Assembly (NCBI GenBank): GCA_029211065.1
Contig: JARGFK010000017.1
Coordinates: 1 to 56,949, forward strand
DNA length: 56,949 nt
Direction: 5' to 3'
Source: Desulfobacterales bacterium
GTDB taxonomy: Bacteria; Desulfobacterota; Desulfobacteria; Desulfobacterales; JARGFK01
This document shows, piece after piece, positions 24,413 to 52,060 of this stretch (positions are counted from its first letter, which is position 1; each line of letters opens with the position of its first letter). A program made the translations under genes and the position numbers. The notes under the pieces are model-generated. The model was not told the origin of the DNA. It worked only from the letters and a program-made list of their open reading frames with translations, and searched no databases.

Positions 24413-24414
24413 AA

Positions 24415-28933: not shown

Positions 28934-28954
28934 TAAAATTTATGGAGGTAAAAT

Positions 28955-29312: not shown

Positions 29313-32300
29313 TGATGGCCCGAAGGGAAACATCACCCCGTCGTCCCGCTCACCGGTCTCCCCATCTCAAATTCGATCACCGCTTGGTACTGGTCAACTG
29401 GATGCTCGACTTATTTGATATGGCCACCTTCGACGACATGGGCAAACACCTGCGCGATCCGGCGTTTGAGGGTTTCAATGAGGACGGCGTTTCGCGTTTC
29501 CACCAATGTTTGAAACTCATTTTCGATCTTCCGGAATTACCGCGCGATATTCTTTTGGTTTACGACGGAAACATTGTCCGGCACTGGAGACAGATTACAG
29601 ATAAAAGAAATGCTGATGGTCAAAACCTGTATCCTAAGTATTTTCAGTATTTGTGTCTGCTGTTTACTGAAATCTACCTGGACCGCTATTTCCGTGATCC
29701 CGAGGGGCTCCTGGCTGATCTGAATGCCTATGCAGAACGTTTCAACGCCGGCGATACCCTCCAGCAAAAGGCGATGGGCCAACTATTTGCAGCAGGCCTG
29801 CCGAAGGACGCCCAAATCAAGACCTATACGCCGCAGGACCTGCGGAAGCTTGCTTTTTGGAGCGCCACCGGTTCAGGCAAAACGCTTCTCATGCACGTCA
29901 ATATCCTGCAGTACCTGCATTACCAGAAGCTGAACGGCCGGGACGGCGACATCAACCGGACCATTCTGCTGACGCCGAATGAGAGTTTAAGTTTTCAACA
30001 TCGCGATGAATTCAGGCTGTCCGGTATATTCGCCGATCTCTTTGATAAGGATGCCGGAGGATTGTTTTCGAGGAGCAGCGTTGAAATTATTGACATTCAT
30101 AAGTTGCGCGAAACCACCGGGGAAAAGACCGTATCCATTGACGCCTTTGAAGGCAACAACCTTGTTTTGGTGGATGAAGGCCATCGGGGTACAAGCGGCG
30201 CGGAAGTCGGCCACTGGATGCAGATGCGCAACCGGCTCTGCGAGAAAGGCTTTTCTTTTGAGTATTCCGCCACTTTCGGGCAGGCGATGAAGGCAAGCGG
30301 CAACAAAGATCTGGCCCATGAGTACGCCAAGTGCATCCTCTTCGATTATTCGTACAAGTATTTCTACGGTGACGGTTATGGCAAGGAATATCGCATTCTC
30401 AACCTTGAAGACGACTCGAATAAAGAACACCGGCGGCGGTATCTGACGGCCTGTCTCTTGGCGTTTTACCAGCAGCAGAAGCTGTTTCTGGACAGGCGAG
30501 ATGAACTGCGAAGCTTCCTGATCGAAAAGCCCCTCTGGATATTCGTAGGCGGAAGCGTCACCAAGACGCCGAGAAAGAGGGACGTTTCGGACGTGGTTGA
30601 CATTCTCCTGCTCCTTGCTCGTTTTGTAAGGAATCGCAGCGAAAGCATCCGTTACATAGAAATGCTCCTTAGCGGCAATTCAGGTCTCCATGATGCCAAG
30701 GGGCGCGAGCTTTTTAAAGGGGCTTTCACCTACCTCGGAAAACTCGGGCTTTCCGGGGAACAGGCTTATCAGGACATCTTAATGGTCCTTTTCAACACGC
30801 AGGTAACCGGTGCGCTGCACGTGCGGCGGCTCAAGGCAGGAGGTGAAGCCGAAGGCGAAGTTGCTTTGCATATTGGCGAGGACAATGACCCATTCGGATT
30901 AATTAATGTCGGCGATTCATCGGGTCTGTGCAAGCTTTGCGAAGAGCACGCCAAGGATTTGGCGGTGTCGGATAGTGAATTTTCTGATTCGCTTTTCCGT
31001 CGCGTAAATTCCGGTGATTCAACACTAAACGTACTGATAGGATCAAAAAAATTTTCAGAGGGCTGGTCGAGTTGGCGCGTGAGTACCATGGGCCTCATGA
31101 ACATCGGCAAGAAGGAAGGCTCGCAGATTATCCAGCTTTTCGGCCGCGGCGTCCGCTTGAAGGGATTTGATTTTTGCCTTAAACGAAGCCATCGCATTGT
31201 CGGTTTCATACCGCCAAAGGACATGGAACGCTTGGAAACACTCAACGTATTCGGAATCCACGCGGATTATATGCGGCAGTTCAAAGAATATATGGAAGAC
31301 GAAGGGCTCCCGGCCAATGAAGACCGCATAGAATTTGTACTGCCGGTGGTTAAGAATCTCGGCAAGAAACCACTGAAGACAATCCGCCTAAGGGAAGGCG
31401 TTGACTTCAAAAAACAGGGACCGAAGCCAACCCTTGAGATACCGGATGAACATCTCAAAAAAAACCCTCTTATCATTGATTGGTATCCAAAAATTCAGGC
31501 GCTTGCAAGCGCCCGGGGTCAGGCGGCACTTGATGCGACCGCACCGAACGAAGCCTGGTTCACCGAAGAGCACCTTGCATTCCTTGACATCGAGAAGCTC
31601 TATTTCGATCTTCAAAGGTTTAAGAGCGAGCGCGCCTGGTACAACCTGAACCTGAGTATGGACAGGATACCGGAATTTCTCATTGATAATAGCTGGTATG
31701 TGCTCCATATACCGCAGGAAGAGATGGAAGCGCAGTCATTTGAGCAGGTGCTTCGGTGGCAGGAGATTGCGTCAATGCTACTCCGTAAATACTGTGACCG
31801 GTTTTATAGGGTCAAAAAGGCCGAATTTGAAAAGGATCATCTTGAATACAAGGTGCTTACCGAAAACGATCCCAACTTCATTGAAAACTATATGTTCATG
31901 GTCGATCAGTCGAGGCAGGACATTGTGACCAAGCTTGCGGAGATCAAAAGTATCATTGAAAGGGGGGAATTACGAAACATCGAATTTCAGGGATTTGCCA
32001 CCGTCATGCTGGGACAGCATCTCTATCAGCCGCTGATCTATGTGAACAGCGCTGTCATAGAGGTGAAACCCGTGTCTCTGAATGAGGGCGAGCGGGATTT
32101 CGTTCTGGATCTCCAGCAAAATTGCTCGCAGAACAAGGATTTCTTTAAGGGCAAAGAGCTCTACCTGCTGCGGAACATGTCTCGAGGAAGGGGAATTGGA
32201 TTTTTTGAAGCGGGAAACTTCTATCCGGATTTCATCATGTGGTTGCTCGCGGATGGGAAACAGTACATCAACTTTATCGACCCTAAAGGCTTGCGCAATT

Positions 32301-32545
32301 TGAAAGGTCCTGACGATCCTAAAATCGCGTTTTACAAGACAATTAAATCCATAGAAGATGATCTCCGGTCTCAGGATTCAATGATTACGTTGAATTCCTT
32401 CATCGTTTCCAATACCCGTTTGCCCGAGGTCGGGTGGTGGGACGGTGGTATGACAAAAGAACAGTTCGATGAACAGCACGTTTTCTTCCAGAAGGAAGAC
32501 AAGGATACTTATATTGAAAAGATGCTAAGGATGACGGTTGCGTAA
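29312..32545 (+). CDS. res: Type III-like restriction subunit (Res): DEAD/DEAH helicase-nuclease
   Basis: A 1077-residue superfamily 2 helicase with restriction nuclease. Motif I ATGSGKT is at 185-191, motif II DEGH at 288-291 and a helicase C-terminal motif IIQLFGRGVRLKG near 610. The C-terminal PD-(D/E)xK nuclease has PDF (972-974) and D990-P-K992 in INFIDPKG. Length and order suit type III Res subunits, which translocate on DNA from unmethylated sites and cut with their Mod partner. A second ATG at 29315 has better spacing from GGAAGG and could be the real start. It is the last gene of the island and ends before a strong terminator. Confidence 0.88.
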   Translation: MMARRETSPRRPAHRSPHLKFDHRLVLVNWMLDLFDMATFDDMGKHLRDPAFEGFNEDGVSRFHQCLKLIFDLPELPRDILLVYDGNIVRHWRQITDKRNADGQNLYPKYFQYLCLLFTEIYLDRYFRDPEGLLADLNAYAERFNAGDTLQQKAMGQLFAAGLPKDAQIKTYTPQDLRKLAFWSATGSGKTLLMHVNILQYLHYQKLNGRDGDINRTILLTPNESLSFQHRDEFRLSGIFADLFDKDAGGLFSRSSVEIIDIHKLRETTGEKTVSIDAFEGNNLVLVDEGHRGTSGAEVGHWMQMRNRLCEKGFSFEYSATFGQAMKASGNKDLAHEYAKCILFDYSYKYFYGDGYGKEYRILNLEDDSNKEHRRRYLTACLLAFYQQQKLFLDRRDELRSFLIEKPLWIFVGGSVTKTPRKRDVSDVVDILLLLARFVRNRSESIRYIEMLLSGNSGLHDAKGRELFKGAFTYLGKLGLSGEQAYQDILMVLFNTQVTGALHVRRLKAGGEAEGEVALHIGEDNDPFGLINVGDSSGLCKLCEEHAKDLAVSDSEFSDSLFRRVNSGDSTLNVLIGSKKFSEGWSSWRVSTMGLMNIGKKEGSQIIQLFGRGVRLKGFDFCLKRSHRIVGFIPPKDMERLETLNVFGIHADYMRQFKEYMEDEGLPANEDRIEFVLPVVKNLGKKPLKTIRLREGVDFKKQGPKPTLEIPDEHLKKNPLIIDWYPKIQALASARGQAALDATAPNEAWFTEEHLAFLDIEKLYFDLQRFKSERAWYNLNLSMDRIPEFLIDNSWYVLHIPQEEMEAQSFEQVLRWQEIASMLLRKYCDRFYRVKKAEFEKDHLEYKVLTENDPNFIENYMFMVDQSRQDIVTKLAEIKSIIERGELRNIEFQGFATVMLGQHLYQPLIYVNSAVIEVKPVSLNEGERDFVLDLQQNCSQNKDFFKGKELYLLRNMSRGRGIGFFEAGNFYPDFIMWLLADGKQYINFIDPKGLRNLKGPDDPKIAFYKTIKSIEDDLRSQDSMITLNSFIVSNTRLPEVGWWDGGMTKEQFDEQHVFFQKEDKDTYIEKMLRMTVA

Positions 32546-33827: not shown

Positions 33828-34232
33828 CTATGCCGGGAATTTAAACAGACGAACATGCAGCTTTCGGGTGCGCGGACCGTCAAATTCACAAAAAAATATG
33901 CCCTGCCAGGTTCCCAGCTGCAGGCTGCCGCTTTCAATGGCGATCATTTCTGAAGCGCCCACTAGGGTCGCCTTGACGTGGGCCGCTGAATTTCCCTCCA
34001 GGTGCCGGTAGCCCGCCTCCCAGGGAACGATTTTATTCAACACCATCAGAATGTCCGACCGGACGCTGGGGTCCGCGCTTTCATTTATCGTAACAGCCGC
34101 CGTGGTGTGGGGCACATACAGCATGCAAAGCCCGTCGGCAACCCCCTGTGAACGAACCAAGTGCTGTATTTCAGCGGTGATGTCAATCAGTTCCGTTTTT
34201 GCTTTGGTTTTTACCGTTATCGAAGTTTTCAT
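33828..34232 (-). CDS. YjbQ/UPF0047 family protein
   Basis: A 134-residue member of the YjbQ (UPF0047) family, a compact beta-barrel trimer. A role as secondary thiamine-phosphate synthase has been reported for the E. coli member. Conserved blocks are LCMLYVPHTTAAVTINESADPSVRSD, HLEGNSAAHVKATLVG and the C-terminal GTWQGIFFCEFDGPRTRKL. Length is typical. It lies downstream of the dsrC terminator and is probably transcribed separately. No thiamine genes are near. Confidence 0.9.
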   Translation of the reverse strand: MKTSITVKTKAKTELIDITAEIQHLVRSQGVADGLCMLYVPHTTAAVTINESADPSVRSDILMVLNKIVPWEAGYRHLEGNSAAHVKATLVGASEMIAIESGSLQLGTWQGIFFCEFDGPRTRKLHVRLFKFPA

Positions 34233-34409: not shown

Positions 34410-34727
34410 TTACACGCAGCCGGTCGGTTTGGGGAGACCGGCCATCTTGCATGCGCCCTTGCCGGGTCCGGACGGAAACAGTTCGTAGATATGTTTCAGC
34501 TTAAAACCCGTTACCTTGGAAAGTACCCGGACCATCGGCGCAATTCCGTTTTTCTTGTAATAGTCCTGGAGTACATTGAGGACTTGCCAGTGTTCTTCCG
34601 ACAACTCATCAATCCCTTCTTCTTTTTTGACAAATTGAACCCATTCGGGGCACCAGTTTTCAAAATTGTCAATAAATCCGTCTTCATCTATAACAAACTT
34701 TTTTCCTCCAAAATCAACTTCTGGCAT
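34410..34727 (-). CDS. dsrC: DsrC, sulfur-carrier partner of dissimilatory sulfite reductase
   Basis: A 105-residue DsrC/TusE-family protein. The flexible C-terminal arm carries both conserved cysteines, Cys93 and Cys104, in GPGKGACKMAGLPKPTGCV. Two cysteines separate true DsrC from TusE. In sulfate reducers it accepts the sulfur formed by DsrAB as a trisulfide, which is then reduced by membrane or Hdr-like complexes. Earlier blocks (FIDNFENWCPEWVQFV, YKKNGIAPMVRVLSK) fit the family. AAAAGGAGG precedes the ATG. The gene lies directly after the hdr-flx cluster but has its own promoter and terminator, so high independent expression is expected. The position supports DsrC as a partner of the Hdr complex. 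Confidence 0.95.
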   Translation of the reverse strand: MPEVDFGGKKFVIDEDGFIDNFENWCPEWVQFVKKEEGIDELSEEHWQVLNVLQDYYKKNGIAPMVRVLSKVTGFKLKHIYELFPSGPGKGACKMAGLPKPTGCV

Positions 34728-34801
34728 TAAACAACCCTCCTTTTATGGAATAATTATATATTGGCTTGCCGCCTTATCAGGCTTTGATTTTATATCGTGC
34801 T

Positions 34802-34830
34802 TATCTATACGATAGAATCCTCAATGTCAA
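34802..34830 (-). promoter_or_regulatory. Promoter of dsrC
   Basis: On the minus strand TTGACA (34825-34830) is followed by TAGATA at 17 bases (34802-34807) or TATAGA at 15 bases. It sits in the 114-base gap between flxA and dsrC. Confidence 0.6.
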
Positions 34831-34841
34831 TATGAAATTTA

Positions 34842-35687
34842 TCAGTATTCCCTGGGCATCCCGTTGAGCTGGGCCAGGGTAAAAACCGGGCCGTCCTTGC
34901 AGACAAATTCCTTGCCGATATTGCACCGGCCGCAGATGCCGATGCCGCATTTCATCCGCATCTCCAGGGACATGATGATATGGTCGTGCCCGTAATTGAG
35001 CTTGTCCAGAACCGGCTGGGTAAACTTGATCATGATCGGCGGTCCGCACACGATCGCATAGGTGTCGGCATTCCCGGGCGGGGCCTTTTGCTCGGTAATG
35101 GTGGGGACAAATCCCACATTGTATTTCCAATCCGGGTCATCGCTGGCATCTACGGTAATGTGAACGTTGATGTCGTCACGTTCTTCCCAGGCCGCCAGTT
35201 CTTTCCGGTAAAGGAGCATGCCGGGCGACCGCGCCCCGTAGATCACATGGATATCCTTAAAATCCTTTCGGTTGGCCGGGTCCAGCATGTAGACAATGGA
35301 GGACCGCAGGGTGGTAAAGGCAAAACCGCCGCCGATAATGACAACGTTTTTTCCTTTCAGCCTCTCCCAGGGATACCAGTTGCCCAGCGGGCCCCGGAGG
35401 CCCATGATGTCCCCCGCCTTCATGGCGTGCAGATAAGACGACACCAGGCCGACCTTGTTGACGGTGAACATGACAAATCCCTTCTCGGTGGGAGACGACG
35501 CAATTCCGATGGGGATTTCGCCCTTGCCGGTCACGGAGAGCTCGGCAAACTGCCCGGCCTGGTATGCAAATTTCTGCTCATCTTCAGGATTTAAAAAAAC
35601 AAAACGGAATGTTTTAAGATTTTTATCTACGGTTTCAGTGATGATTTCATCAATGCGAACCGGATATGGCAAATATGGATTGAGCAC
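34842..35687 (-). CDS. flxA: FAD/NAD(P)-binding oxidoreductase subunit (FlxA-like)
   Basis: A 281-residue ferredoxin-reductase-fold subunit: FAD domain (about 10-100, with GQFAELSV and GLRGPLGNWYP), NAD-binding domain with NVVIIGGGFAFTTLRS, and a C-terminal cysteine cluster MRMKCGIGICGRCNIGKEFVCKDG for a [2Fe-2S] centre, as in dihydroorotate dehydrogenase electron-transfer and sulfhydrogenase gamma subunits. In Desulfovibrio FlxA brings NADH electrons into the FlxABCD-HdrABC complex. A GTG at 35687 is chosen because AAGGGGG precedes it by six bases; a GTG five codons upstream is less well placed. It is the last gene of the hdr-flx run before dsrC. Confidence 0.88.
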   Translation of the reverse strand: MLNPYLPYPVRIDEIITETVDKNLKTFRFVFLNPEDEQKFAYQAGQFAELSVTGKGEIPIGIASSPTEKGFVMFTVNKVGLVSSYLHAMKAGDIMGLRGPLGNWYPWERLKGKNVVIIGGGFAFTTLRSSIVYMLDPANRKDFKDIHVIYGARSPGMLLYRKELAAWEERDDINVHITVDASDDPDWKYNVGFVPTITEQKAPPGNADTYAIVCGPPIMIKFTQPVLDKLNYGHDHIIMSLEMRMKCGIGICGRCNIGKEFVCKDGPVFTLAQLNGMPREY

Positions 35688-35732
35688 CGCATCCCCCTTC
35701 ACCCGGAAATTTTACCGGGGCAACACGAAATG

Positions 35733-36773
35733 TTACCGGCAAGTTTCGTAACTGTTCATCAGTTCACAGACGCGTCGGATATCAATATTGACCGGGCACT
35801 GGCGAATACACCGGCCGCAGCCCACGCATTGAATGCCGCTGCTGTATTTATCTAAATAATATTTAAGTTTGTGCATAAACCGCTGCCGCACCCGCTTGGT
35901 CTTTGTATTTCGCGGATTGTGGCCGGACCCGTGAAAGGTAAAGAGCGGATACATGCAGCTGTCCCAGTTGCGCATCCGAAGGCCCGACTTTCCGCTGACC
36001 TCGTCCTGAATGTCGAAACACCAGCAGGTCGGACAGACATAGGTACAGGTCCCGCAATTGATGCAGCTAAAGGCCACTTCGTCCCAAAAAGGGGCGTCAA
36101 ACAACTCCGGAATGGTCTTTTCCGCCAGCCGGTCGGTTTGAACGGCCGTGCGGATTCGGCTCTCAGCCTCGGTTTTCAGCGCGTCGATGGGGCCGCTGTC
36201 AGCCGCTTCGCCCCACCCTGCAGTTTTCAAAAAACTTTCCCCTTTAGCGGTAATCGCCTTTGCCAGAAAAGCGTCCGTCTCTTCCACCAGCAGGACATCC
36301 AGCCCTTCCTCGCCAAACGGACCGCAGCCGGCCGTGGTGCAGAAACAGGTCTGACAGGGCTGCCGGCAGGCCAGCCCCACCAGGGTTGTGCCCTCATAGG
36401 CCCGCACCCAGTAAATATCCCGGTATTCGGGCGTGTCAAAATTTCTTTTTACCAGCAAAAAAGCGGCCGCATCACAGGGCCGGATGCCGAGGATCGCCAT
36501 GGGCATGGTATTGCCGGCAACCTCTTTCAGGATATGATGGTCTTCCTTGTTTTCATCCAGGGTGTAGTGAAACATCACCTCTGTCTGGGGATAAATGATC
36601 GCTTTGGGGGACAACCGGGTATTCTGAAAATTAAAATCCGGGAGAATGCCTTTTTCCAGCAGGTCAAAGTTGTGAAACCCGTCCGCTTTAACCGGACCGT
36701 ACAGGCGATACCCGCTTTTCAATGCCTCGATTCCTTCGGTCCACTTTTGCTTGTCTATTCTTACACCCTTCAT
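35733..36773 (-). CDS. 4Fe-4S dicluster subunit of the Flx/Hdr complex (hydrogenase-beta-like)
   Basis: A 346-residue iron-sulfur protein like the beta subunits of sulfhydrogenases and Flx proteins. A first set of cysteines (ACRQPCQTCFCTTAGCG, near 130-147) is followed by two [4Fe-4S] motifs, CINCGTCTYVCPTCWCFD (near 235-252) and CVGCGRCIRQCP (near 320-331). It should pass electrons between FlxA, which starts 46 bases downstream, and the other Fe-S subunits. The ATG at 36773 has AAGGG eight bases upstream; a GTG three codons earlier is possible. The Hdr-like order of genes makes it FlxB or FlxC; the exact letter is not certain. Confidence 0.85.
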   Translation of the reverse strand: MKGVRIDKQKWTEGIEALKSGYRLYGPVKADGFHNFDLLEKGILPDFNFQNTRLSPKAIIYPQTEVMFHYTLDENKEDHHILKEVAGNTMPMAILGIRPCDAAAFLLVKRNFDTPEYRDIYWVRAYEGTTLVGLACRQPCQTCFCTTAGCGPFGEEGLDVLLVEETDAFLAKAITAKGESFLKTAGWGEAADSGPIDALKTEAESRIRTAVQTDRLAEKTIPELFDAPFWDEVAFSCINCGTCTYVCPTCWCFDIQDEVSGKSGLRMRNWDSCMYPLFTFHGSGHNPRNTKTKRVRQRFMHKLKYYLDKYSSGIQCVGCGRCIRQCPVNIDIRRVCELMNSYETCR

Positions 36774-36858
36774 GTGATGCACCCTTTATCTCAAAGCGGT
36801 CACTTGTTAGCAATGGCGCCTTGCGCCAAACAGCCCTGGACGAACGACAGCCATGAAT

Positions 36859-37806
36859 TTATTTGATAAATTTATCCGGATCATCGGGTCTATAGGTATC
36901 CAGCGGCGGTCTGACCTCCAGCGACAGGCCCGCCTCCCATTTGAACAGCGCCAGACAGTCTTTTTCCAGTTTTTTGGTCAGGAGCCGGACCCTGATCCCC
37001 ACCGGGCAGGCCCGTTCACAGGCGCCGCAGTCCGTACAGCGGCCGGCGCAATGATACGCCCTTAAGAAATGAAATGTTCTGACATCGGTCGGGTCCTGGC
37101 CTTTGCCGACCCACTGGGGCCGGGATTCATCCACAAAGCAGGTGGGGCAGTAGCACAGGGGGCAGGCATTGCGGCAGGCATAGCAGCGGATGCACCCGGC
37201 CAGCAGCTCGTCAAAAAATTGATATTTTTCTTCCGCCGGCAGCCCTTCGATCCGGCGGACGTCCGCATACCGGTCCACGCCCTCCTGCTCCTTAACCGGC
37301 TCTGCCGCCAGTTCATCGTATTCCACCGGATTGCGGTGGCTGCAGGTGGTGCAGTTGTCCTGGAGCACGTCCGGTTTTTTAAAGGTCTTTTCAGTTTCGC
37401 CCCCCTTGACCACGATCCCGTCGCCCGTCTCAGCAACGCTCTCTATTTCAGCATACAACATCCCGGCAATTTTCCGCCGGTCGATCATCCCTTTGCAGGG
37501 GACCCCGATAATATAGAGCTGCTCCCTTTTGATCTTGTTTTCAATGACATGGGTGACAATATTGCGGGAATCGCACCCCTTGGCCACAATGCCGATTTTT
37601 CCCTTGCGGTCGGCCAGGTAATTCGCCAGATTGATGCCGCAGTTGCTGTCCCACACCAGATTTTTCACATCCTCGGGCTTTTGGACGAAGTGCGGTTCAT
37701 TCATCAGCGGCACGGTCCCCCTGCGAAACCCGATCACCATTTCGACCGTGCCTTCCTTTAAAATCTTTTCGGCTATTTTCCGGATGGTATCAATGTATTC
37801 CAGCAT
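36859..37806 (-). CDS. 4Fe-4S dicluster subunit of the Flx/Hdr complex (FrhB-like N-terminus)
   Basis: A 315-residue protein. Its N-terminal 200 residues resemble coenzyme F420-hydrogenase beta/FrhB-like folds (GIVAKGCDSRNIVTHVIENKI, IGVPCKGMIDRRKI), including a cysteine pair DNCTTCSHRNP. The C-terminal part has CIRCYACRNACPLCYCPTC and CTDCGACERACPVGI, for two [4Fe-4S] clusters. It starts three bases after the mvhD stop, so the two are coupled. In Hdr-linked complexes such subunits often bind flavin or hand electrons to the HdrA flavin. It is the second Flx Fe-S subunit. Confidence 0.85.
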   Translation of the reverse strand: MLEYIDTIRKIAEKILKEGTVEMVIGFRRGTVPLMNEPHFVQKPEDVKNLVWDSNCGINLANYLADRKGKIGIVAKGCDSRNIVTHVIENKIKREQLYIIGVPCKGMIDRRKIAGMLYAEIESVAETGDGIVVKGGETEKTFKKPDVLQDNCTTCSHRNPVEYDELAAEPVKEQEGVDRYADVRRIEGLPAEEKYQFFDELLAGCIRCYACRNACPLCYCPTCFVDESRPQWVGKGQDPTDVRTFHFLRAYHCAGRCTDCGACERACPVGIRVRLLTKKLEKDCLALFKWEAGLSLEVRPPLDTYRPDDPDKFIK

Positions 37807-37808
37807 GT

Positions 37809-38240
37809 TTAAGCCACCTTAGCCATGTTCTTTACAAATCGTTTATTGGGACCCAGGGCCTTGACCGCCTCCGTGACCCTTTTGACCACATCGACAAACT
37901 TGGTCGACTCGGCCGAAGAAATCCAGGAGAAATGAATGCGGCCGGGCTCAATCCCCATGTATTCCGCCAGGTTTTCAAAAAGTGCGAACTTGCGTCGAGC
38001 GTAATAATTACCTTCCAGGTAATGGCAGTCGCCGGGATGTCAGCCGGACACCCAGACGCCGTCGGCCCCCTCGCGCAGGGCCGCCAGAAAAAATTTGGGG
38101 CTCATGCGGCCGGCACAGGGAATGCGAATCACCCGGATGTTGGCCGGATAGGACATCCGGCCGACGCCGGCCAGATCGGCGGCGCCGTAGCTGCACCAGT
38201 TGCACAGAAAACTGATGATTTTAGGTTCCCAATCGGTCAT
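37809..38240 (-). CDS. mvhD: MvhD/FlxD-family selenoprotein (hydrogenase iron-sulfur subunit), Sec67
   Basis: A 143-residue protein read through an in-frame UGA. Translation from ATG 38240 (GGAG five bases upstream) gives the MvhD family fold with Cys13 and Cys16 ([15 protein letters not shown]), Cys42 (IPCAGRMSP) and then VWVSG-U67-HPGDC72[12 protein letters not shown]. Family members have Cys at position 67 in the G-C-H-P-G-D-C motif, and the frame continues to a normal family end after the UGA. MvhD binds a [2Fe-2S] cluster and passes electrons to HdrA. The Sec form is known for VhuD of Methanococcus. The next gene starts three bases after the stop. Confidence 0.9.
38007..38042 (-). promoter_or_regulatory. 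UGA Sec codon with candidate bacterial SECIS hairpin in mvhD
   Basis: The UGA is at 38040-38042 (complement). Beginning 17 bases after it, ATTACC-TGGAA-GGTAAT (38007-38023) forms a clean six-pair hairpin, in the 16-37-base window where bacterial SECIS elements lie. The stem is shorter than that of fdhF, so only experiment can confirm it. Confidence 0.65.
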
Positions 38241-38318
38241 GTTGTCTCCTTCGACTGTATGAAATTCCAACCCCCGGGATCATTGCCCCGGAGAAACAAT
38301 GTTTGCATTACATAATCC

Positions 38319-38388
38319 TTGGAATATTGGAATGATGGAAAATTTGAAATAGGAAGCAGAAGTCGCCCTGCCAAACCCAATATTCCAA
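38319..38388. repeat. Inverted repeat of TTGGAATATTGG type between hdrA and mvhD
   Basis: TTGGAATATTGG (38319-38330) recurs as its exact complement at 38377-38388, with extended partial similarity (GGAATG blocks) on both sides. It lies in the 250-base gap within an otherwise tight operon and looks like a dispersed extragenic repeat. It could also fold in the message. Confidence 0.6.
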
Positions 38389-38490
38389 CATTCCATTTTT
38401 CCCCCGTCCCATCGCATGCGATCACCGCAGAGACTGTTACCTTTATGCTGGTCCTGAATGACAGGTTTTACAAAAAGTTATTCTAACCTA

Positions 38491-41400
38491 TCAAACCGCT
38501 TCGCGCAAAGAAAAAATCTGCGCGAAGATCTGGTCATTGTCAAACCCCCTTAACCGAATGGCGCCGGAGCGGCAGGAGGCCACGCACAGGCCGCAGCCTT
38601 TGCACAAGACCGGATTGATCTCGGCCTTGCCGGTAAAGGGGCCCTTCTGGATGAAGGACGGGGCCGAATACGGGCAGAGCGCCACACAGGCGCCGCAACT
38701 GCTGCAGCTCATCGCATCCGTATGCGCCACCGTGCCGCTCATCTGGATGGTTTTTTTGGCCAGCAGGGTTACCGCCCGGGTGGCCGCCGCCTGGGCCTGG
38801 GCGATCGATTCGTCCAGGGGTTTGGGGGCATGGGCCAGGCCGCAGATAAACACGCCGTCCGTGGCACAATCCACCGGCCGGAGCTTGACATGCGCCTCCA
38901 TAAAAAACCCGTCGTCATTCAGGGTCACCTTGTACTGCTGGGCCAGGGGATTTTCCCTGGGCGGGGTAATCGCCGTCGCCAGCACCACCATGTCCGGGCT
39001 GATCTCCATCCGGCGCCGCAGAATCGTATCCGTAAACCGGAGTTTCAGGTTCCCGTCTTCGGCAGCCACGTCCAGCCCTTTATCAAAGTCGTGGCGGATA
39101 AAAATAATGCCCCGGGCACGGGCCTCGCGATACAGATCTTCGCGCAGCCCGTAGGAACGCAGGTCCCGGTATAGAATAAACACGTCCATGTCCGGGTTCA
39201 GTTCTTTCAGCTTAAGGGCGCTGCCGATGGAATGGGTGCAGCAGACCTTGGAGCAGTAGGGGCGCTCCGGGATGCGCGAGCCGACGCATTGAATGAAAAG
39301 CGCCGTCTTTTTCTCTTTCAGGGCCGGATCGTTTTCAATAAATTTTTGATCGAGCTCAAGGGCCGTCAAAACGCGCGGATCCTTTCCGTAAAGATACAGG
39401 TCCGGTTTCAGCTCGGTTGCACCCGAGGCGATGATCGTCACCCCGTGGGTCAGCTCATGCGCTTTGTCGCCGGTCTTGATGGTGGTCTTAAAATTTCCCA
39501 CAAAACCATCCACCTTCGTGATTTCGGCATTCAGATAAACCTCGATCTTTTCATCGGCGGTTACCGCCCGGGTCAGTTTTAGAAGGTTCTGCTGGATATC
39601 TTCCCTTCGCCAGGTCTCATACAGGTGCCGGGCCTGTCCCCCCAGCCGGTCCGCCTTCTCGACGATGATGGCGTAAAAACCCTGCTGTGAAAGGGTTTGG
39701 GCGGCCGTCATTCCCGTAAAGCCGCCGCCGATGACCAGGGCGGTCTGATTGATCTCCAGTACCGGTTCGCTCAAGGCTTCCAGCAGGGCCACCTTGGCCA
39801 CGGCCATGCGCGTCAGTTCCTTGCTTTTTTCAGTGGCCTCGGCCGGAATGGCGCCGTGAACCCATGAGCACTGGTTGCGGATATTGGCCATTTCAAACAG
39901 GTATTTATTGATGCCCGCATTGGTTACGGTTTCCTGAAAAAGCGGTTCATGGGTTTTAGGCGTGCAGGCCGCCACCACAATGCGGTTCAGGTTCTTTTCC
40001 TTGATCAGCTTGGCCATATTGTTCTGGGTGTCCTGGGAGCAGCTGAACATGTTCTCCTCGGCGTAGACGACATAGGGAAGCGTCCGGGCGAATTCAACCA
40101 CCCCGGGCACATCCACCACGCCGCCGATGTTGGTGCCGCAGTGGCAGACAAAGACCCCGACCCGGGGCGATTCCCCCCGGGTGTCCGTCTGGACGGGGAT
40201 TTCCTTTTTCTTTGTCAGGGTCCAGCGCGATTCGATCAGGCTGCTGCCGGCCATGCCGGCGGCTGCGCTGGATTCGATCACCGAAGACGGAATGTCTTTG
40301 GGCGCTTCCACGGCGCCGCAGACATAAATACCGGGTGCTGAGGTTTGGACCGGCGTAAAGCTGCTGGTAACGACAAACTGGTACGGATCCAGGGCGACTT
40401 TCATCCGGTTGGCCAGTTCCACCGCCGATGGGCTCACCCCCAGACCGACGGACAAGACCACCATGTCAAACGCTTCTTCCACCCGCCGGCCGGACGCGTC
40501 GATGTAGCGGATGAGCTGTCGGCCGTCGTCGGACTGGGGAACAATATTCGTGATTTTCGACTTGATAAACCGAACGCCGGCGTCCTTGCTGCGGTTGTAA
40601 TACTTTTCGAAATCCTTGCCGTGGGTGCGCATATCCATATAAAAGATGGCCGTATCCAAAGGCGCTTTGCTGTGCTCTTTGGCCAGCATCGCTTCTTTAA
40701 CGGCATAGGTGCAGCACACCGACGAACAGTACCCCCTGGCGCCGATATGCACATCGCGGGACCCGACGCACTGGAGCCAGGCGATTTTTTTAGGCTCCTG
40801 CTCGTCGGACGGCCGAACCAGGTGGCCGCCGTAGGGCCCGGAGGCCGAAAGGATGCGCTCAAATTCGAGGCTGGTAACGACATCCGGGGATTTGCCGTAC
40901 CCGTACACATCATGGCCCTTGGGATCATAGGCTTCACAGCCGCTGGTGATGATGACCGATCCGACCTCAAGGATTCTTTCGCTTTGCCGGTCTTCAAAAT
41001 TGATCGCATCCGTGGGACAGAATTTTTCGCAGGCCTTGCACTTTCCCTTTATCAGATAGATGCACTCCCGGGGATCGATGGCGTATTTCAGGGGAACCGC
41101 CTGGGCATACCGGACATAAACGGCCTTGCGTTTTATCAGGCCGCTGTCATACTCGCTGGTGACTTTTTTGGGGCACTTTTCCGCGCACAGACCGCAGGCA
41201 ATGCACTTTTCAACATCCACATAGCGCGGGTGCCGGGTAACCGTCACGCTGAAATTTCCGGCCTCCCCGGAGATGCCCTGTACCTCTGAAAGCGTCAGCA
41301 GTTCGATATTAATGTGCCGGCCGACCTCGACCAGCTTGGGTGAAATAATTCACATGGCGCAGTCGTTGGTGGGAAATGTCTTGTCCAGTTGAGACATCAC

Positions 41401-41529
41401 GCCGCCGATGGAAGCGGTCCGCTCAACCAGGTAGACATAATATCCGGAATCGGCCGCATCCAGTGCAGCCTGCATCCCGGCAATCCCGCCGCCGACAACC
41501 ATAACCGAACCAATCTTTTGTTGAGACAT
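38491..41529 (-). CDS. hdrA: HdrA selenoprotein (heterodisulfide reductase subunit A), Sec60
   Basis: A 1012-residue HdrA read through an in-frame UGA at codon 60. The start at 41529 (GGAGTAAAA-ATG) opens a FAD fold ([17 protein letters not shown]), then NDCAM-U60[13 protein letters not shown], where ordinary HdrA has Cys, then [15 protein letters not shown] and a second domain with [15 protein letters not shown]. The C-terminus has [12 protein letters not shown] and [11 protein letters not shown]. It looks like a fused double-HdrA, with two flavin-type folds and several [4Fe-4S] motifs. In Hdr complexes HdrA carries the flavin that bifurcates electrons between ferredoxin and the disulfide substrate. 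Without recoding, a gene caller would start at 41247 and lose 94 residues. hdrB ends three bases upstream. Confidence 0.93.
41350..41352 (-). other. In-frame UGA selenocysteine codon of hdrA
   Basis: The UGA falls exactly where HdrA proteins have the Cys of D-C-A-M-C, and reading resumes with perfect family similarity. Methanococcus HdrA is an established selenoprotein at this family position. I could not pick out a clean SECIS hairpin by eye downstream. Confidence 0.85.
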
Positions 41530-41531
41530 TT

Positions 41532-42407
41532 TTACTCCTGCACGAAATAAGCTTCGATACCGCTGATATCCATTTTATTCATGTCTATTCCCAGCGCCCG
41601 GCGGTCAATCCCCATGGCAAGCCCCAGAAGCTGCGGGTAAAGGATCGCGGGGAGATTGTCCACCCCGCCGCGGTCCGCCGTCATCATCTGTTGAACCGCA
41701 TCAAACTGCATCTGGCAATAGGGACAGGCGACGGACAGATAGTTTGCACCGGCCGCTTTGGCGTCCGCCAGTTTTCGCGCGGTCAGGTCCATGGAAAGCT
41801 CATCGTTGCTTCCCAAAAGCGGCGCCCCGCAACATTCCAGCCGGGTCGCCCAGTCGATGCTTTTGCTGCCGGTGGCCGCCACCAGTTCGTCAAAAACAAC
41901 CGGCGCCACCGGGTTGTCAAACTGCATGATGTCGCTGGGCCGCAGCGCGTGGCAGCCGTAATGGGTTGCAATTTTTAAATTTTTGAATGTCCGCGTCATT
42001 TTTTCCTTTAAGGCCGGCAGGCCGATATCGTGATACAGCACCGACAGAAAATGCTTGACAACCATCGTCCCGCTGACAGCCAGCCCTTCTTTTGCCAGAA
42101 ACGCATTGACTTCGTTGCGCAGGGCCGCGTCCTCCCTGAGCACGTGGGCGGCCTTTTTCAGGCTGCCGAAGCAGCACTTGCAAAGCGTCAGCATGTCCAC
42201 CCCCTGTTGCTCGGCCAGGGCTATATTCCGGGCGGACAACATCAGGTACAATTTAAAATCGATATTGCGGATGGGGTAGCCACAGCATTTAAATTCAGGC
42301 AGGTCCACCACCTCCACCGCGAGCCTGTCCAGGACCGCCCGGGCCGACAATTCATATTGTTTGACGCGGGCCGGAATATTACAGCCCAGAAATAACGCAA
42401 ATTTCAT
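41532..42407 (-). CDS. hdrB: HdrB, heterodisulfide reductase subunit B
   Basis: A 291-residue protein with two CCG domains, each holding the C-x(n)-CC-G-x-P/C-x-x-C pattern: [13 protein letters not shown] with CKCCFGSLK in the first half, [11 protein letters not shown] with [10 protein letters not shown] in the second. These bind the non-cubane [4Fe-4S] clusters that split a disulfide in HdrB. In sulfate reducers the substrate is thought to be the DsrC disulfide or trisulfide rather than CoM-S-S-CoB; the dsrC gene at the end of the cluster fits. It lies directly upstream of hdrA (two-base gap) and 175 bases downstream of the HdrC-like gene. Confidence 0.93.
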
Positions 42408-42489
42408 ATCGGATTCCCATCATCTAAGTACAGGTTTTCGTAAATTCACACGCGTATTCTGCAACCTGGAATTTTGAACACTTTCTTGA

Positions 42490-42536
42490 AAAATCCCCCT
42501 TGCCCCCTTTATTAAAGGGAAGTCGGGAGGGATTTT
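42490..42536. repeat. Imperfect inverted repeat of the AAAATCCCCC type
   Basis: AAAATCCCCCTTGCCCCC pairs imperfectly with GGGAAGTCGGGAGGGATTTT, with AAAATCCC/GGGATTTT as its tips. Such C-run/G-run palindromes are common dispersed intergenic repeats in Desulfobacterota. It sits in the hdrC-hdrB gap of the operon. Confidence 0.65.
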
Positions 42537-42582
42537 AAAATGTTATTGTAATCATCAAATAGAGTACTAAACCTTTTTTGCA

Positions 42583-44352
42583 TCAGTTGATTCGATCTTC
42601 CCCGGAAGCCCGTTGGGCTTCCTTTAGCGCCAGGTTTTTAAGCTCATAGAGCACATCGGTTACCTTGACGCCCTGGGGACAATGCTCCTGGCATTGATAG
42701 CAGGTCAGACAATTCCACAGCATGTTTGACCCCATAGCCAGGTCCTTTAACCCGAGACCCACCGAACGCATGATCTGGTGCGGCAGAAGTTTTAAAACCG
42801 CCTGGGGGTTTTCATAGTTTTCCACAACCGGGCAAACCGTGCTGCAGTTTTCACAGGCAAAACAGTAGGCATAGGTGTTGGCCTGTGACGACGCATCGGC
42901 CTGCCCCTTCAAGTCTTTATCCAGGGTATTCAAGGCGACGACATGGTCGGGCGCATCTATCATTTTAAAATTGGCCGCAACCGCTTCGGCGGCAGCCGTC
43001 AGCGGCTGTCTATACGTTTCAGCATCCAGGCCCTGCCGGTTCAACCCCCGGTAAAAAGAAAACGGCGTGAGCATCATCGCAACCGGGAGCCCTTTGTGAA
43101 TGAGCTCCTCGCGCACATTAAACCACAGTTCGCGTAAATTGATTCCGGCCGGGCACACCACGGTACAGCGATCACAGTTGGTGCACAGGTAAATACCCTC
43201 TTGAATGGCCCGCAGTCCCTTTTCATCAAGGGTTTTATCGGCGGCATAGGCTTTTAAAAAAATCAGTTTTTCCGAAGGAAGAATGTTGGCATTGTTTAAC
43301 CGGTCAAAAGCAGGCGCAACCGAACAGCGCAGGCTGCAGGTGCCGCAGTGGGTGCAGGCATCCAGCTCCATGACCTGGCGGGTGGCGATATTGGCCGGGT
43401 GGGACTTTTCCTTATCCATGACCGCCCCGGCCATCAGGCTGACGGGACTGGCGATGATATGAAACATCTTGCTGAACGGCAGATAGGCCAGCCCCAAAAA
43501 ACAGGCCAGGATATGAATGGTCCAGAGGATGTCGGCCGCACCGGCGCTGTCCAATCCCAAAGCGATCGGTCGCATTGCTTTGGCGGCAGCAAACCCGGTA
43601 AAGGCCCATTTCGGTGAGGAATGACAGGCGGCGCAACTCTCCTCATGGATTTCACCGCCCTGTTCCAGGACCGCTTCGTCAAAGGGCGCCTCGACTTCTT
43701 CAGAAACCACCCCGAACTCATAGACCCACAGGCTCTCCAGCGCCTTGACCTGTTCGTCGTCATCCAGGCTGCTATAGCTGTCCACCATGGCGCGAAATAC
43801 CGTTGGCGACGTGATTTTGACACCCTCCAGCAAAACCCCCGAAATCATGATAACGGCCACAATCAGGATCGCATAAAGATCCATGGCATTGGTTTTCAGC
43901 CGCGGCACCTTTAAGATAAACCGGCGATAAATGGCGATGGCAACCCCCACGATCACCATCAACCCGAAAAGGTCGCGCAGGAACATGAACGGGTTCAGGG
44001 TGCTATAATAATCGCTGAAAATGTTAACCGTAATCAGCTTGTCCAGGGCATGCATCAGGAGCAGCAGCATAAATCCGGCAAAAATGAGCATGTGCATCAG
44101 CCAGCGCAGAAAATCCTCTTTGAATATGCGCATCTGCAAGAGCACTTCGACGATAAAAACCCTGATCAGCGTGAATACATCCCGGCTAAAAAAAACCCCC
44201 ACGATCCCTTTGGCCGCCTCTGAGAACCGTGTAGCTGCAGAATAGTTGTCCGCCTGCATTCCGATATTGCGGCGAAACCAGGTGGAAATTTTGTAAACCA
44301 GGCCGAATCCAAAGATGATGAGCGCAGCTGTCAGCGCCAAATTAAAAAACAT
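42583..44352 (-). CDS. Membrane HdrC-like protein: cytochrome b, heme c site and four 4Fe-4S motifs
   Basis: A 589-residue fusion. Five hydrophobic helices (about 2-22, 82-107, 122-142, 156-178, 273-310) resemble NarI/DsrM-type cytochrome b. Between the last two lies a single heme c motif C240-A-A-C-H244. After the membrane part come four [4Fe-4S] motifs: C333/336/339/343, C390/393/396/400, C497/500/503/507 and C548/551/554/558; the last pair is the usual HdrC module. Soluble HdrC has only two clusters and no membrane part. The protein probably links the Hdr complex to the quinone pool or a periplasmic cytochrome, as QmoC or Tmc/Hme subunits do. AAGGA precedes the ATG. First gene of the minus-strand cluster. 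Confidence 0.85.
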   Translation of the reverse strand: MFFNLALTAALIIFGFGLVYKISTWFRRNIGMQADNYSAATRFSEAAKGIVGVFFSRDVFTLIRVFIVEVLLQMRIFKEDFLRWLMHMLIFAGFMLLLLMHALDKLITVNIFSDYYSTLNPFMFLRDLFGLMVIVGVAIAIYRRFILKVPRLKTNAMDLYAILIVAVIMISGVLLEGVKITSPTVFRAMVDSYSSLDDDEQVKALESLWVYEFGVVSEEVEAPFDEAVLEQGGEIHEESCAACHSSPKWAFTGFAAAKAMRPIALGLDSAGAADILWTIHILACFLGLAYLPFSKMFHIIASPVSLMAGAVMDKEKSHPANIATRQVMELDACTHCGTCSLRCSVAPAFDRLNNANILPSEKLIFLKAYAADKTLDEKGLRAIQEGIYLCTNCDRCTVVCPAGINLRELWFNVREELIHKGLPVAMMLTPFSFYRGLNRQGLDAETYRQPLTAAAEAVAANFKMIDAPDHVVALNTLDKDLKGQADASSQANTYAYCFACENCSTVCPVVENYENPQAVLKLLPHQIMRSVGLGLKDLAMGSNMLWNCLTCYQCQEHCPQGVKVTDVLYELKNLALKEAQRASGEDRIN

Positions 44353-44986: not shown

Positions 44987-45925
44987 ATGAATCGGGATAA
45001 ATCGAAACCGAAAGTGATCGTCATCTGCGGCCCCACCGGCAGCGGCAAAACCGCTGCCGCCATTGAGTTGGCCGTCCGGTTTAACGGACAGATCATCAGT
45101 GCCGATTCCATGCAGATTTACCGCTTTATGGATATCGGCACCGCCAAACCCACCCTCCTGGAGCAGCAGCAGGTTCAACACCACCTGATAGATGTGGTGA
45201 CGCCGGATGAACCCTTCAATGCCGCCCGCTTTGCCGATATGGCCCAAAGCCTCATCAGCGGGCTTCAAGGGAAAGGATTCGTTCCCTTTGTAGTGGGCGG
45301 AACCGGCCTTTACATCAAAGCCCTGCTAAAAGGGCTGTTTCCGGCCGAACCGGTTGATCCGGCCCTGCGCAGCCGCCTGAAAAAAGAGGCCGCCGCCCAT
45401 GGCGCCGCATTTTTACACCGGCGCCTGGGGGAGTGTGACCCTGAAGCCGCCGGCAGAATTCATCCCAATGACACCTACCGGATCCTGCGGGCGCTGGAAA
45501 TCTATGAATCAACCGGCCAATCGATTTCGCAGTTTCAGTCCGATCATGGATTCAGCGAGAAACCTTTCTCTGTTTTAAAAATCGGGCTGGACACCGACCG
45601 GATTGAATTATATGAAAGAATCAATGGGCGGGTGGACCGTATGATCGCGGCCGGCTTGCTGCCGGAGGTCAAAAACCTGCTGGACCGGGGGTATGCCCCC
45701 ACCCTTAAATCCATGCAGTCCATCGGCTATCGCCACCTGGTCGATTTTCTTGAAGGCCGCCTGTCCTGGCCCGAAGCCCTCAGAACCTTTAAACGCGACA
45801 CCCGGCGGTATGCCAAACGACAGCTGACCTGGTTTAAATCCGACGGCGAAATCAACTGGGTAGCGGCTGAAGACACAACCCGCATGATGGATCTTGCAAA
45901 TAACTTTTTAACGGATGCATGTTAA
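44987..45925 (+). CDS. miaA: tRNA dimethylallyltransferase MiaA
   Basis: A 312-residue MiaA enzyme that adds a dimethylallyl group to A37 of tRNAs reading UNN codons. The P-loop GPTGSGKT is at 15-22. The DSMQIYRFMDIGTAKPT segment, GGTGLYIKALLKG, the tRNA-binding insertion with IHPNDTYRILRALEIY, and the C-terminal KSMQSIGYRHLVDFLEG and DTRRYAKRQLTWF are all present. Length is typical. It starts the plus-strand run of genes leading to the Rnf operon. The DsrE-like gene follows 19 bases after its stop and may be cotranscribed. Confidence 0.95.
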   Translation: MNRDKSKPKVIVICGPTGSGKTAAAIELAVRFNGQIISADSMQIYRFMDIGTAKPTLLEQQQVQHHLIDVVTPDEPFNAARFADMAQSLISGLQGKGFVPFVVGGTGLYIKALLKGLFPAEPVDPALRSRLKKEAAAHGAAFLHRRLGECDPEAAGRIHPNDTYRILRALEIYESTGQSISQFQSDHGFSEKPFSVLKIGLDTDRIELYERINGRVDRMIAAGLLPEVKNLLDRGYAPTLKSMQSIGYRHLVDFLEGRLSWPEALRTFKRDTRRYAKRQLTWFKSDGEINWVAAEDTTRMMDLANNFLTDAC

Positions 45926-47491: not shown

Positions 47492-47884
47492 ATGGTTTCA
47501 AAAAAAGAGCTGCAGATGGCTTATGGACTGGCTATCGTTTTGTTTATTGTGGGTGTCGTCAGCTACGCCGCGTTTCCTGCAAAAACGCCGGACCGCCCGG
47601 TAAGGCTCATGTTTCAGAGCATTGCCGGAAATGTCCTGTTCGACCACAAGACCCATACAGGTGCCTCGGGCTACGGCCTTTCCTGCCGCGATTGTCACCA
47701 TACCCTGGAAGCAGGCGAAACAGAGGCAACGGCCTGCATCGAATGCCACGAACGTGAAAGCGAAGACCCCAGTGTGCCCAAGCGATCGGATGCATTCCAC
47801 ACGCAGTGTACCAAGTGCCATAAGGAAATCGAAGCTGGCCCTCAGGAGGGTCCTGATGGCTGCGCGTCGTGCCATGTCAGGTAA
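47492..47884 (+). CDS. Tetraheme cytochrome c (c3 type) of the Rnf operon
   Basis: A 130-residue class III-type cytochrome with an N-terminal anchor or signal (residues 12-28) and four CxxCH sites: 65-69, 82-86, 106-110, 124-128. Extra histidines (His52, His55, His70, His103) can act as sixth ligands. It should be periplasmic, perhaps membrane-tethered because no clear cleavage site follows the helix. In Desulfovibrio and relatives a multiheme cytochrome gene precedes rnfC, and is thought to exchange electrons between Rnf and the periplasmic cytochrome pool. The gap to rnfC is 66 bases. Confidence 0.9.
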   Translation: MVSKKELQMAYGLAIVLFIVGVVSYAAFPAKTPDRPVRLMFQSIAGNVLFDHKTHTGASGYGLSCRDCHHTLEAGETEATACIECHERESEDPSVPKRSDAFHTQCTKCHKEIEAGPQEGPDGCASCHVR

Positions 47885-47950
47885 CTTTGTATGATTTAGC
47901 AGATGTTATGCGCTTTCATTTTATACTTTTAACAACAAAAGGTTGAAACC

Positions 47951-50186: not shown

Positions 50187-50187
50187 C

Positions 50188-50781: not shown

Positions 50782-50806
50782 AGCAGTATCCACAGGGAGA
50801 TTCAAG

Positions 50807-51463: not shown

Positions 51464-51473
51464 GAGAATATCC

Positions 51474-52049: not shown

Positions 52050-52060
52050 GGGAGGTATGT

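What the first reader, a model, noticed from the sequence alone, without database searches (positions are those of the whole stretch)
34410..44352. Hdr-Flx cluster with two adjacent selenoproteins and dsrC
Ten kilobases encode a membrane HdrC-like protein, HdrB, HdrA, MvhD/FlxD, two Fe-S subunits, FlxA and finally DsrC. Seen in sequence: in-frame UGA codons exactly at the family Cys of HdrA (codon 60) and MvhD (codon 67). Known: Hdr-Flx in sulfate reducers oxidises NADH with flavin-based bifurcation and DsrC is the proposed disulfide partner; HdrA and VhuD are selenoproteins in Methanococcus. Inference: here the Sec residues sit along one electron path (FlxD to HdrA), a bacterial parallel to the archaeal case, and dsrC in the cluster argues for the DsrC disulfide as the acceptor.
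Basis: partly seen in the sequence, partly recalled or inferred. Interest (0 to 1): 0.85.

Follow-up and report, generated by a model that had tools for sequence, protein, structure and literature searches.

The report
Membrane-anchored selenoprotein Hdr-Flx with DsrC
A sulfate-reducing bacterium carries genes for an NADH-oxidising enzyme with two selenocysteine subunits, next to its only detected gene for the sulfur-carrier protein DsrC, and in this lineage one subunit is a membrane cytochrome-like protein that probably also ties the enzyme to the respiratory chain.

Summary
hdrA codon 60 and mvhD/flxD codon 67 are in-frame UGAs at a family Cys. The assembly has selA, selB, tRNA-Sec and selD, and the hairpin after each UGA is nearly frozen in UGA homologues but relaxed in Cys homologues, so selenocysteine is near certain at sequence level. 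Sec HdrA with Sec FrhD/MvhD in Deltaproteobacteria has been in print since 2006; that part is not new.

It is a 589-aa NarI-like membrane protein with four conserved heme-b-type His, a CxxCH in 81 of 81 rows, and 16 invariant Fe-S Cys; with HdrB it precedes HdrA.

dsrC is the assembly's only hit; dsrA lies elsewhere. In 63 of 86 order genomes with both genes listed, dsrC follows flxD by 3.0-3.7 kb.

In 115 of 126 distinct pairs HdrA-60 and FlxD-67 are both Sec or both Cys; 11 are mixed, so the coupling is real but loose.

Verdict: a new variant of Flx-Hdr, a Sec-dependent, membrane-anchored complex probably linking NADH, ferredoxin, DsrC and menaquinone or cytochrome c. Protein-level proof is lacking.

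The parts
42583..44352 (-). HdrC-like membrane subunit, 589 aa: NarI-like cytochrome-b domain, acidic loop with CxxCH, then two dicluster [4Fe-4S] modules
   Evidence: Pfam Nitrate_red_gam, Fer4_8, Fer4_10; His 87/101/280/298 and 16 Fe-S Cys conserved in 81 rows; hydropathy
43621..43635 (-). CAACH (CxxCH) heme-c motif of the HdrC-like subunit, residues 240-244
   Evidence: present in 81 of 81 aligned rows, window included
41532..42407 (-). HdrB, 291 aa, two CCG stretches
   Evidence: Pfam CCG, two stretches; 224.7 bits to 5odc_B
38491..41529 (-). HdrA selenoprotein, 1012 aa, two pyridine-nucleotide-disulfide-oxidoreductase-like halves
   Evidence: 634 bits in three stretches to 5odc_A; UGA at codon 60
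41350..41352 (-). in-frame UGA, Sec60 of HdrA (CAMU)
   Evidence: Cys197 position of 5odc_A
41316..41335 (-). SECIS-like hairpin of hdrA, 8-bp stem, loop AGGU
   Evidence: z -2.70 for 42 nt, -1.76 for 62 nt; conservation contrast Sec vs Cys
37809..38240 (-). FlxD/MvhD selenoprotein, 143 aa
   Evidence: Pfam FlpD 6.5e-51; AlphaFold model mean pLDDT 82.8, best PDB match 5odc_D, TM 0.84
38040..38042 (-). in-frame UGA, Sec67 of FlxD (UHPGDC)
   Evidence: Cys67 of 5odc_D
38007..38023 (-). SECIS-like hairpin of flxD, 7-bp stem, loop GGA
   Evidence: z -1.46 for 42 nt, +0.84 for 62 nt; six stem pairs and the loop identical in 63 of 63 distinct UGA sequences, loop-closing T-A in 54
36859..37806 (-). 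FlxC, 315 aa Fe-S protein
   Evidence: Fer4_8; same order in relatives
35733..36782 (-). FlxB, 349 aa Fe-S protein, AsrA/HydB-like
   Evidence: Fer4_22; AsrA and sulfhydrogenase-beta models matched below cut-off
34842..35702 (-). FlxA, 286 aa, FAD- and NAD-binding, DHODB-type Fe-S domain
   Evidence: NAD_binding_1, FAD_binding_6, DHODB_Fe-S_bind
34410..34727 (-). DsrC, 105 aa, both C-terminal Cys; only DsrC hit of the assembly
   Evidence: 179.3 bits, ungapped to 2v4j_C; one PF04358 hit in own genome
34753..34780 (-). promoter-like site between flxA and dsrC
   Evidence: 10 of 12 consensus matches, but the scan as a whole is near chance: 12 found, 9.2 expected; promoter-like sites in relatives

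Best explanation
A selenocysteine-dependent, membrane-anchored variant of the NADH-oxidising Flx-Hdr complex of sulfate reducers. Inferred path: NADH gives electrons to FlxA; they pass FlxB/FlxC to the [2Fe-2S] protein FlxD (Sec67), then to the bifurcating FAD in the first half of HdrA (Sec60). One branch reduces ferredoxin; the other runs through HdrA, the HdrC-like Fe-S clusters and HdrB. HdrB, with two CCG stretches, reduces the DsrC disulfide, and the same chain is wired through HdrC's b hemes and a periplasmic c heme to menaquinone or periplasmic cytochrome c. Shown here: gene content, Sec codons, Sec machinery, hairpin conservation, conserved heme and Fe-S motifs, single linked dsrC. Inferred: complex formation, direction, topology, and that both DsrC and the membrane are real partners.
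For: Sec. Membrane HdrC. HdrC-HdrB-HdrA order recurs in named loci; the full HdrCBA-FlxDCBA-DsrC layout is seen in 11 of the 126 distinct pairs examined, window included, many stretches being too short to show it. DsrC: only hit in an assembly rated 100% complete, with dsrA and a dsrB-like neighbour on another contig; 63 of 86 order genomes with flxD and dsrC listed have them within 7 kb on the same strand. Literature: passages in PMC10553843 and PMC6687939 treat DsrC as a partner of Flx-Hdr in sulfate reducers.
Against: No protein, activity or transcript data. 74 of 95 pairs with at least 2.9 kb upstream show no HdrB and membrane HdrC by the window queries (more divergent ones would be missed, and L251 and L254 have weak HdrC-like hits), though many have DsrC, so HdrCB is not needed for the DsrC linkage. 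The HdrC-HdrB pair also occurs with an HdrA without Flx downstream (L067, L095) or with a short Sec HdrA piece followed by NuoEF-like genes (L046, L071). dsrC may have its own promoter and is also the sulfite-reductase partner, so linkage alone does not prove interaction. Of 15 pairs with membrane HdrC, full FlxCBA and at least 4.2 kb downstream, 4 show no DsrC.
Confidence: 0.58

Rival explanations
1. Soluble-type Flx-Hdr chemistry only: NADH is bifurcated to ferredoxin and DsrC disulfide, and the membrane HdrC is just an anchor with no exchange with quinone or periplasm.
For: Flx and Hdr catalytic parts are present; dsrC linkage; DsrC treated as Flx-Hdr partner in PMC10553843.
Against: Four heme-b-type His at 99-100% and a CxxCH in 81 of 81 rows are not needed for a mere anchor.
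Confidence: 0.2
2. A DsrC-independent quinone enzyme, or one running in reverse: it works like a membrane NADH:quinone bifurcase (as FixABCX does, recalled), with ferredoxin re-oxidised by Rnf; dsrC is a neighbour with its own promoter.
For: Cytochrome-b/c-type HdrC; Rnf genes 3-10 kb away in the window; promoter-like sites before dsrC in relatives.
Against: dsrC linkage holds in much of the order (63 of 86); HdrB keeps two CCG stretches, as in the disulfide-reducing HdrB; no RnfC hit in the 80 named loci, many of which have little upstream sequence.
Confidence: 0.16
3. The UGA codons are real stops or sequencing errors, giving truncated HdrA and FlxD.
For: With table 11 the hdrA frame is open only from the GTG at 41247.
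Against: 57 of 68 HdrA copies in 63 loci have UGA at the same codon; 70 Sec/Sec distinct pairs; hairpins nearly frozen in UGA copies; selA, selB, selC, selD present.
Confidence: 0.02

Closest known systems
FlxABCD-HdrABC of Desulfovibrio vulgaris (Ramos 2015; seen only as a reference and as described in PMC6687939, PMC10553843 and PMC6470260)
   Same: FlxA, FlxB, FlxC, FlxD, HdrA and HdrB homologues; proposed NADH donor, ferredoxin and DsrC acceptors
   Different: HdrC here is a 589-aa membrane protein with two dicluster modules and heme motifs; Sec in HdrA and FlxD; dsrC adjacent. That the D. vulgaris HdrC is short and soluble is recalled
Selenoprotein HdrA/FrhD operons of Deltaproteobacteria and methanogens (PMC1794560; PMC2702500; PMC13188914)
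   Same: Sec at the HdrA CxxU and in the adjacent FrhD/MvhD delta subunit
   Different: Those operons carry FrhG/FrhA hydrogenase and GlpC; here FlxABC, membrane HdrC and DsrC. The 2026 review lists the MvhD/VhuD motif as CxxU with two Sec; here the one Sec is in UHPGDC and CNWC keeps both Cys
HdrL1-MvhD-Dsr cluster and HdrF proteins of Desulfobacterium autotrophicum (PMC2702500)
   Same: Sec HdrL1 followed by MvhD and genes named DsrA, DsrB, DsrC; HdrF has transmembrane plus HdrC/HdrB domains
   Different: HdrF there is clustered with GlpAB or EtfBA; no heme-c motif in the passages I read. My guess that those 'DsrA/DsrB' could be FlxB/FlxA was not tested
HotSeep-1 HdrA complex with a c-heme and CCG-domain protein (PMC10553843, passage)
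   Same: HdrA with a partner that binds heme c and has a CCG domain, proposed to pass electrons between cytochromes c and DsrC or ferredoxin
   Different: There heme c and CCG are in one protein and no Flx is mentioned; here heme-c motif and Fe-S are in HdrC, CCG in HdrB, with FlxABCD. The sequences were not compared
DsrMK(J), TmcBC, QmoC
   Same: cytochrome b joined to Fe-S and CCG modules, exchange with DsrC or quinone (recalled)
   Different: NCBIfam cut-offs not met: QmoC 91.8 of 300 bits, DsrK 23.8 of 400, TmcC 19.4 of 240

Membership tests
FlxABCD-HdrABC | FlxA with FAD and NAD-binding domains | tested here: met
FlxABCD-HdrABC | FlxB and FlxC Fe-S proteins, FlxD MvhD-like, adjacent to HdrA | tested here: met
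FlxABCD-HdrABC | HdrB with two CCG domains | tested here: met
FlxABCD-HdrABC | short soluble HdrC (183-191 aa in the solved HdrC chains) | tested here: not met
   589-aa membrane protein; only residues 466-582 match solved HdrC
FlxABCD-HdrABC | NADH-driven bifurcation to ferredoxin and a disulfide | not testable with these tools
   needs purified complex
Sec-containing HdrA and FrhD/MvhD selenoproteins | in-frame UGA at a family Cys | tested here: met
Sec-containing HdrA and FrhD/MvhD selenoproteins | selA, selB, selC, selD in the genome | tested here: met
Sec-containing HdrA and FrhD/MvhD selenoproteins | bacterial SECIS-like hairpin just downstream of UGA | tested here: met
   by conservation, not covariation; Rfam gathering scan found nothing in the window
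Sec-containing HdrA and FrhD/MvhD selenoproteins | Se in the protein | not testable with these tools
   needs 75Se or mass spectrometry
DsrC | both C-terminal Cys and ungapped match to DsrC of solved DsrABC | tested here: met
   dsrA and a dsrB-like neighbour in the genome
QmoC / DsrK / TmcC | curated NCBIfam score cut-off | tested here: not met

The most novel reading that the evidence does not exclude
The two Sec/Cys sites are one functional unit: the HdrA CxxU near the bifurcating FAD and the FlxD/MvhD UxxxxC near the [2Fe-2S] cluster form a selenol/thiol relay that carries electrons across the roughly 25 A gap between MvhD and HdrA, a step that a 2025 structure paper (PMC12350162, passages) leaves to 'an unknown mechanism'. 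That is why the two sites tend to switch between Sec and Cys together. In this lineage the relay feeds a four-way junction of NADH, ferredoxin, DsrC and menaquinone or periplasmic cytochrome c. The nearness of the two sites to FAD and cluster is inferred from motif position; no distance was measured.
Probability: 0.11. Interest if true: 0.88.

Novelty: new variant of a known kind. Interest (0 to 1): 0.6.

Why it matters
What accepts the high-potential electron in Flx-Hdr, and how electrons get from MvhD to the bifurcating flavin, are open questions. This cluster ties the enzyme to the cell's only detected DsrC and, in this clade, to a conserved b/c-type membrane protein, so a cytoplasmic bifurcase and the respiratory chain may meet in one complex. 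The tendency of two residues in two subunits to switch between Sec and Cys together names exact residues to mutate when testing how electrons reach the flavin.

Tried and rejected
Stop-codon or sequencing-error reading: rejected. Strict obligate Sec-Sec pairing: rejected; 11 of 126 distinct pairs are mixed (7 Sec HdrA with Cys FlxD, 4 the reverse), and in 4-5 of 11 contrasts where FlxD differs HdrA does not. Rnf as a conserved neighbour: no RnfC hit in 80 loci, many with short upstream. Covariation in the hairpins: none; the columns hardly vary and the partner shuffle gives the same value, so the argument rests on the contrast with Cys copies, which share part of the coding constraint. Folding energy alone separates the copies weakly: mean z -0.99 vs -0.53 for hdrA, -1.43 vs -0.39 for flxD. 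AlphaFold of FlxD gave no coordinates I could measure, so which of the five invariant Cys (13, 16, 42, 67, 72) do not bind the [2Fe-2S] stays open. Rows not used: of 109 regions, 15 because the 'codon 60' came from HdrA's second half and 30 because no codon was covered; searches dropped both L282 pairs (one misaligned, one Sec/Sec), which still contained.
Full report
What is there. The window is contig 17 of a 4.94 Mb, 269-contig assembly rated 100% complete and 4.29% contaminated; the best named relatives of its HdrC are mostly MAGs titled Desulfobacterales, Desulfobacteraceae or Deltaproteobacteria. UGA codons stand at hdrA codon 60 and flxD codon 67, aligned with Cys197 of Methanothermococcus HdrA and Cys67 of its MvhD. 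hdrA and flxA also end in UGA (read), so HdrA is 1012 aa.

Sec is near certain at sequence level. The assembly has tRNA-Sec (77.2 bits), selB (391.6 bits), selA (610.3 bits) and three selD hits over the cut-off, each with one in-frame TGA. The RNA after each UGA can fold into a SECIS-like hairpin, 17-36 nt downstream in hdrA and 19-35 nt in flxD (z -2.70 and -1.46 for 42 nt; -1.76 and +0.84 for 62 nt, so the longer flxD stretch is no better than shuffles). Comparison is more telling. Among distinct 42-nt contexts, 96% of 93 UGA hdrA sequences keep the stem with at most one mismatch, against 37% of 30 Cys ones; the loop is AGGU in 88 of 93 against 6 of 30. For flxD, six of seven stem pairs and the GGA loop are identical in 63 of 63 UGA sequences; of 29 Cys sequences 41% keep the stem with at most one mismatch and 7 keep the loop. 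In the Cys copies L024, L025, L051, L061 and L235 the hdrA loop G is replaced by a synonymous change. There is no covariation, because the UGA columns hardly vary.

The two sites tend to switch together. Among pairs from the 109 stretches taken from order genomes and the 80 named loci, 82 of 83 distinct adjacent HdrA/FlxD pairs agree (60 Sec/Sec, 22 Cys/Cys, 1 mixed); on the HdrA tree HdrA changes state 5 times and FlxD 6, and the 5 independent contrasts agree in nearly all pairings (median p 0.0625). With 60 phylum-wide stretches added, 115 of 126 agree (70 Sec/Sec, 45 Cys/Cys; 7 Sec/Cys, 4 Cys/Sec). On that tree HdrA changes 8 times and FlxD 11; where HdrA differs, FlxD goes the same way in 5-6 of 7 independent contrasts (4 in one of 200 pairings), never the other way; where FlxD differs, HdrA goes the same way in 6 of 11, the other way in 0-1, and does not differ in 4-5 (median p 0.03 both, which still held the two L282 rows, was similar with 9 and 11 contrasts). 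So HdrA switches mostly with FlxD, while FlxD also switches alone. These are FastTree trees. All 23 pairs with the membrane HdrC agree (16 Sec/Sec, 7 Cys/Cys). Several order genomes carry both a Sec-type and a Cys-type FlxD, reminiscent of Vhu/Vhc in methanogens (named in PMC2702500).

HdrC is a different thing. Solved HdrC chains are 183-191 aa and match only residues 466-582. The window protein has a NarI-like domain, two dicluster modules and a CxxCH. In 81 aligned rows, window included, the CxxCH is present in all, His 87, 101, 280 and 298 are 99-100% conserved, and 16 Fe-S Cys are invariant. Hydropathy finds six hydrophobic stretches; with 50-68 taken as not spanning, they fit a NarI-like five-helix arrangement (recalled), with the acidic 176-274 loop and its CxxCH outside and the Fe-S part inside (inference). 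NCBIfam cut-offs for QmoC, DsrK, TmcC and HdrC are not met. The HdrC-HdrB pair precedes hdrA in 21 of 95 pairs with at least 2.9 kb upstream. Of the 23 pairs with it, 22 fall in one starred 23-row set of the HdrA tree, whose other row (L156) shows no HdrCB in the stretch held; L070 lies apart. In the order search 46 of 116 genomes have an HdrC match at E 1e-60. Elsewhere hdrA starts directly beside miaA (L154), carries what looks like a GltD-type insertion (L164), or stands behind NuoEF-like genes (L204) (names by eye).

DsrC. The gene encodes a genuine DsrC: 179.3 bits, ungapped to 2v4j_C, both C-terminal Cys. It is the only PF04358 hit of the assembly, while dsrA and a dsrB-like neighbour lie on contig 106. 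In the order, 105 of 116 genomes have a DsrC hit at E 1e-6 and 97 of these 105 have exactly one (counted). Of 86 genomes with both a listed Flx-type FlxD and DsrC, 63, the window's included, have dsrC 2,959-3,657 bp after flxD on the same strand. Of the other 23, about 15 have flxD contigs that end too soon, three of them borderline (my reading of contig lengths), and 8 appear unlinked, one of them (G053) in a stretch with masked bases. Outside the order linkage is rarer: of the 85 distinct pairs with full FlxCBA and at least 4.2 kb downstream, order and phylum together, 42 show DsrC and 43 do not. A promoter-like site tends to recur before dsrC: mean best score 9.0 against 8.3 shuffled over 71 upstream regions, 26 with 10 or more matches, many starting TTGACA. 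So dsrC may have its own promoter.

Mechanism. Shown: parts, Sec codons, conserved cofactor motifs, linkage. Inferred: NADH to FlxA, FlxB/C, FlxD, the HdrA FAD, then ferredoxin on one branch and HdrC/HdrB on the other, with HdrB serving DsrC and HdrC exchanging with menaquinone or periplasmic cytochrome c. Direction may be either way.

Literature, all seen as search listings and passages. PMC1794560 (Sec HdrA/FrhD/FrhA/GlpC operons in Deltaproteobacteria), PMC2702500 (D. autotrophicum Sec HdrA, HdrL, MvhD; HdrL1-MvhD followed by Dsr genes; HdrF membrane proteins), PMC13188914 (2026 review), PMC5109826 (D. multivorans Sec hdrA and mvhD), PMC10553843 (Flx-Hdr and DsrC; HotSeep-1 HdrA with a heme-c/CCG protein), PMC6687939, PMC9430772 (Sporomusa HdrCBA-MvhD, 22-kDa HdrC, membrane-integral partner unidentified), PMC12350162 (unknown MvhD-to-FAD step, 25 A), PMC6019823, PMC12054007, PMC6129605, PMC12142623, PMC6470260, PMC5861303. 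A search for papers with HdrA, FlxD and selenocysteine gave 0. One for HdrC, cytochrome b, FlxABCD and membrane-bound gave 4; I read passages of three, none of which described a heme-c HdrC, and saw PMC8578096 only in the listing. Ramos 2015, Appel 2021 and Ferreira 2023 were seen only as references, so novelty of the membrane HdrC is provisional.

Verdict. Observation confirmed; interpretation partly supported; a new variant of a known kind.

Noticed in passing
window 47492-54130 (+): Rnf gene cluster preceded by a class III cytochrome c gene (47492-47884); its RnfB ORF (52061-54130, 689 aa) looks fused to a GltD-like oxidoreductase by eye.
   Followed up: partly
G000 contigs C7, C26, C37 (L017-L019): Three selD hits over the cut-off, each with an in-frame TGA, in one assembly; paralogues or contamination (4.29%).
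   Followed up: no
L204 (-5.8 to 0 kb before flxD) and L046 (13298-18937): NuoE/NuoF-like genes directly before an HdrA whose N-terminus looks like a [2Fe-2S] domain; in L204 it still stands before a Sec FlxD. In L046 and L071 a short Sec HdrA piece precedes the NuoE-like gene.
   Followed up: partly
order genomes G013, G017, G046, G066, G067, G071, G081, G089, G095 and others: Sec-type and Cys-type FlxD copies in the same genome.
   Followed up: partly
L276-L279: Reverse mixed pairs: HdrA with CSAC at the site and FlxD with UGA, in genomes outside the order.
   Followed up: no
window 24367-32545 (+): Type III restriction-modification-like pair (N6_N4_Mtase 25760-28933, ResIII 29312-32545) next to an AAA_14/DUF4143 ATPase.
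   Followed up: partly
window 33828-34232 (-): YjbQ-like gene (name by eye) after dsrC, also found after dsrC in L028, L033, L035 and L059.
   Followed up: partly
window 44987-45925 (+): miaA-like gene (by eye) divergent beside the cluster; a similar neighbour stands beside hdrA in L154 and beside hdrC in L028.
   Followed up: partly
dsrC upstream regions of relatives: Recurring TTGACA-type site roughly 100 nt before dsrC in many relatives, and a different promoter-like site nearer the gene in the window.
   Followed up: partly
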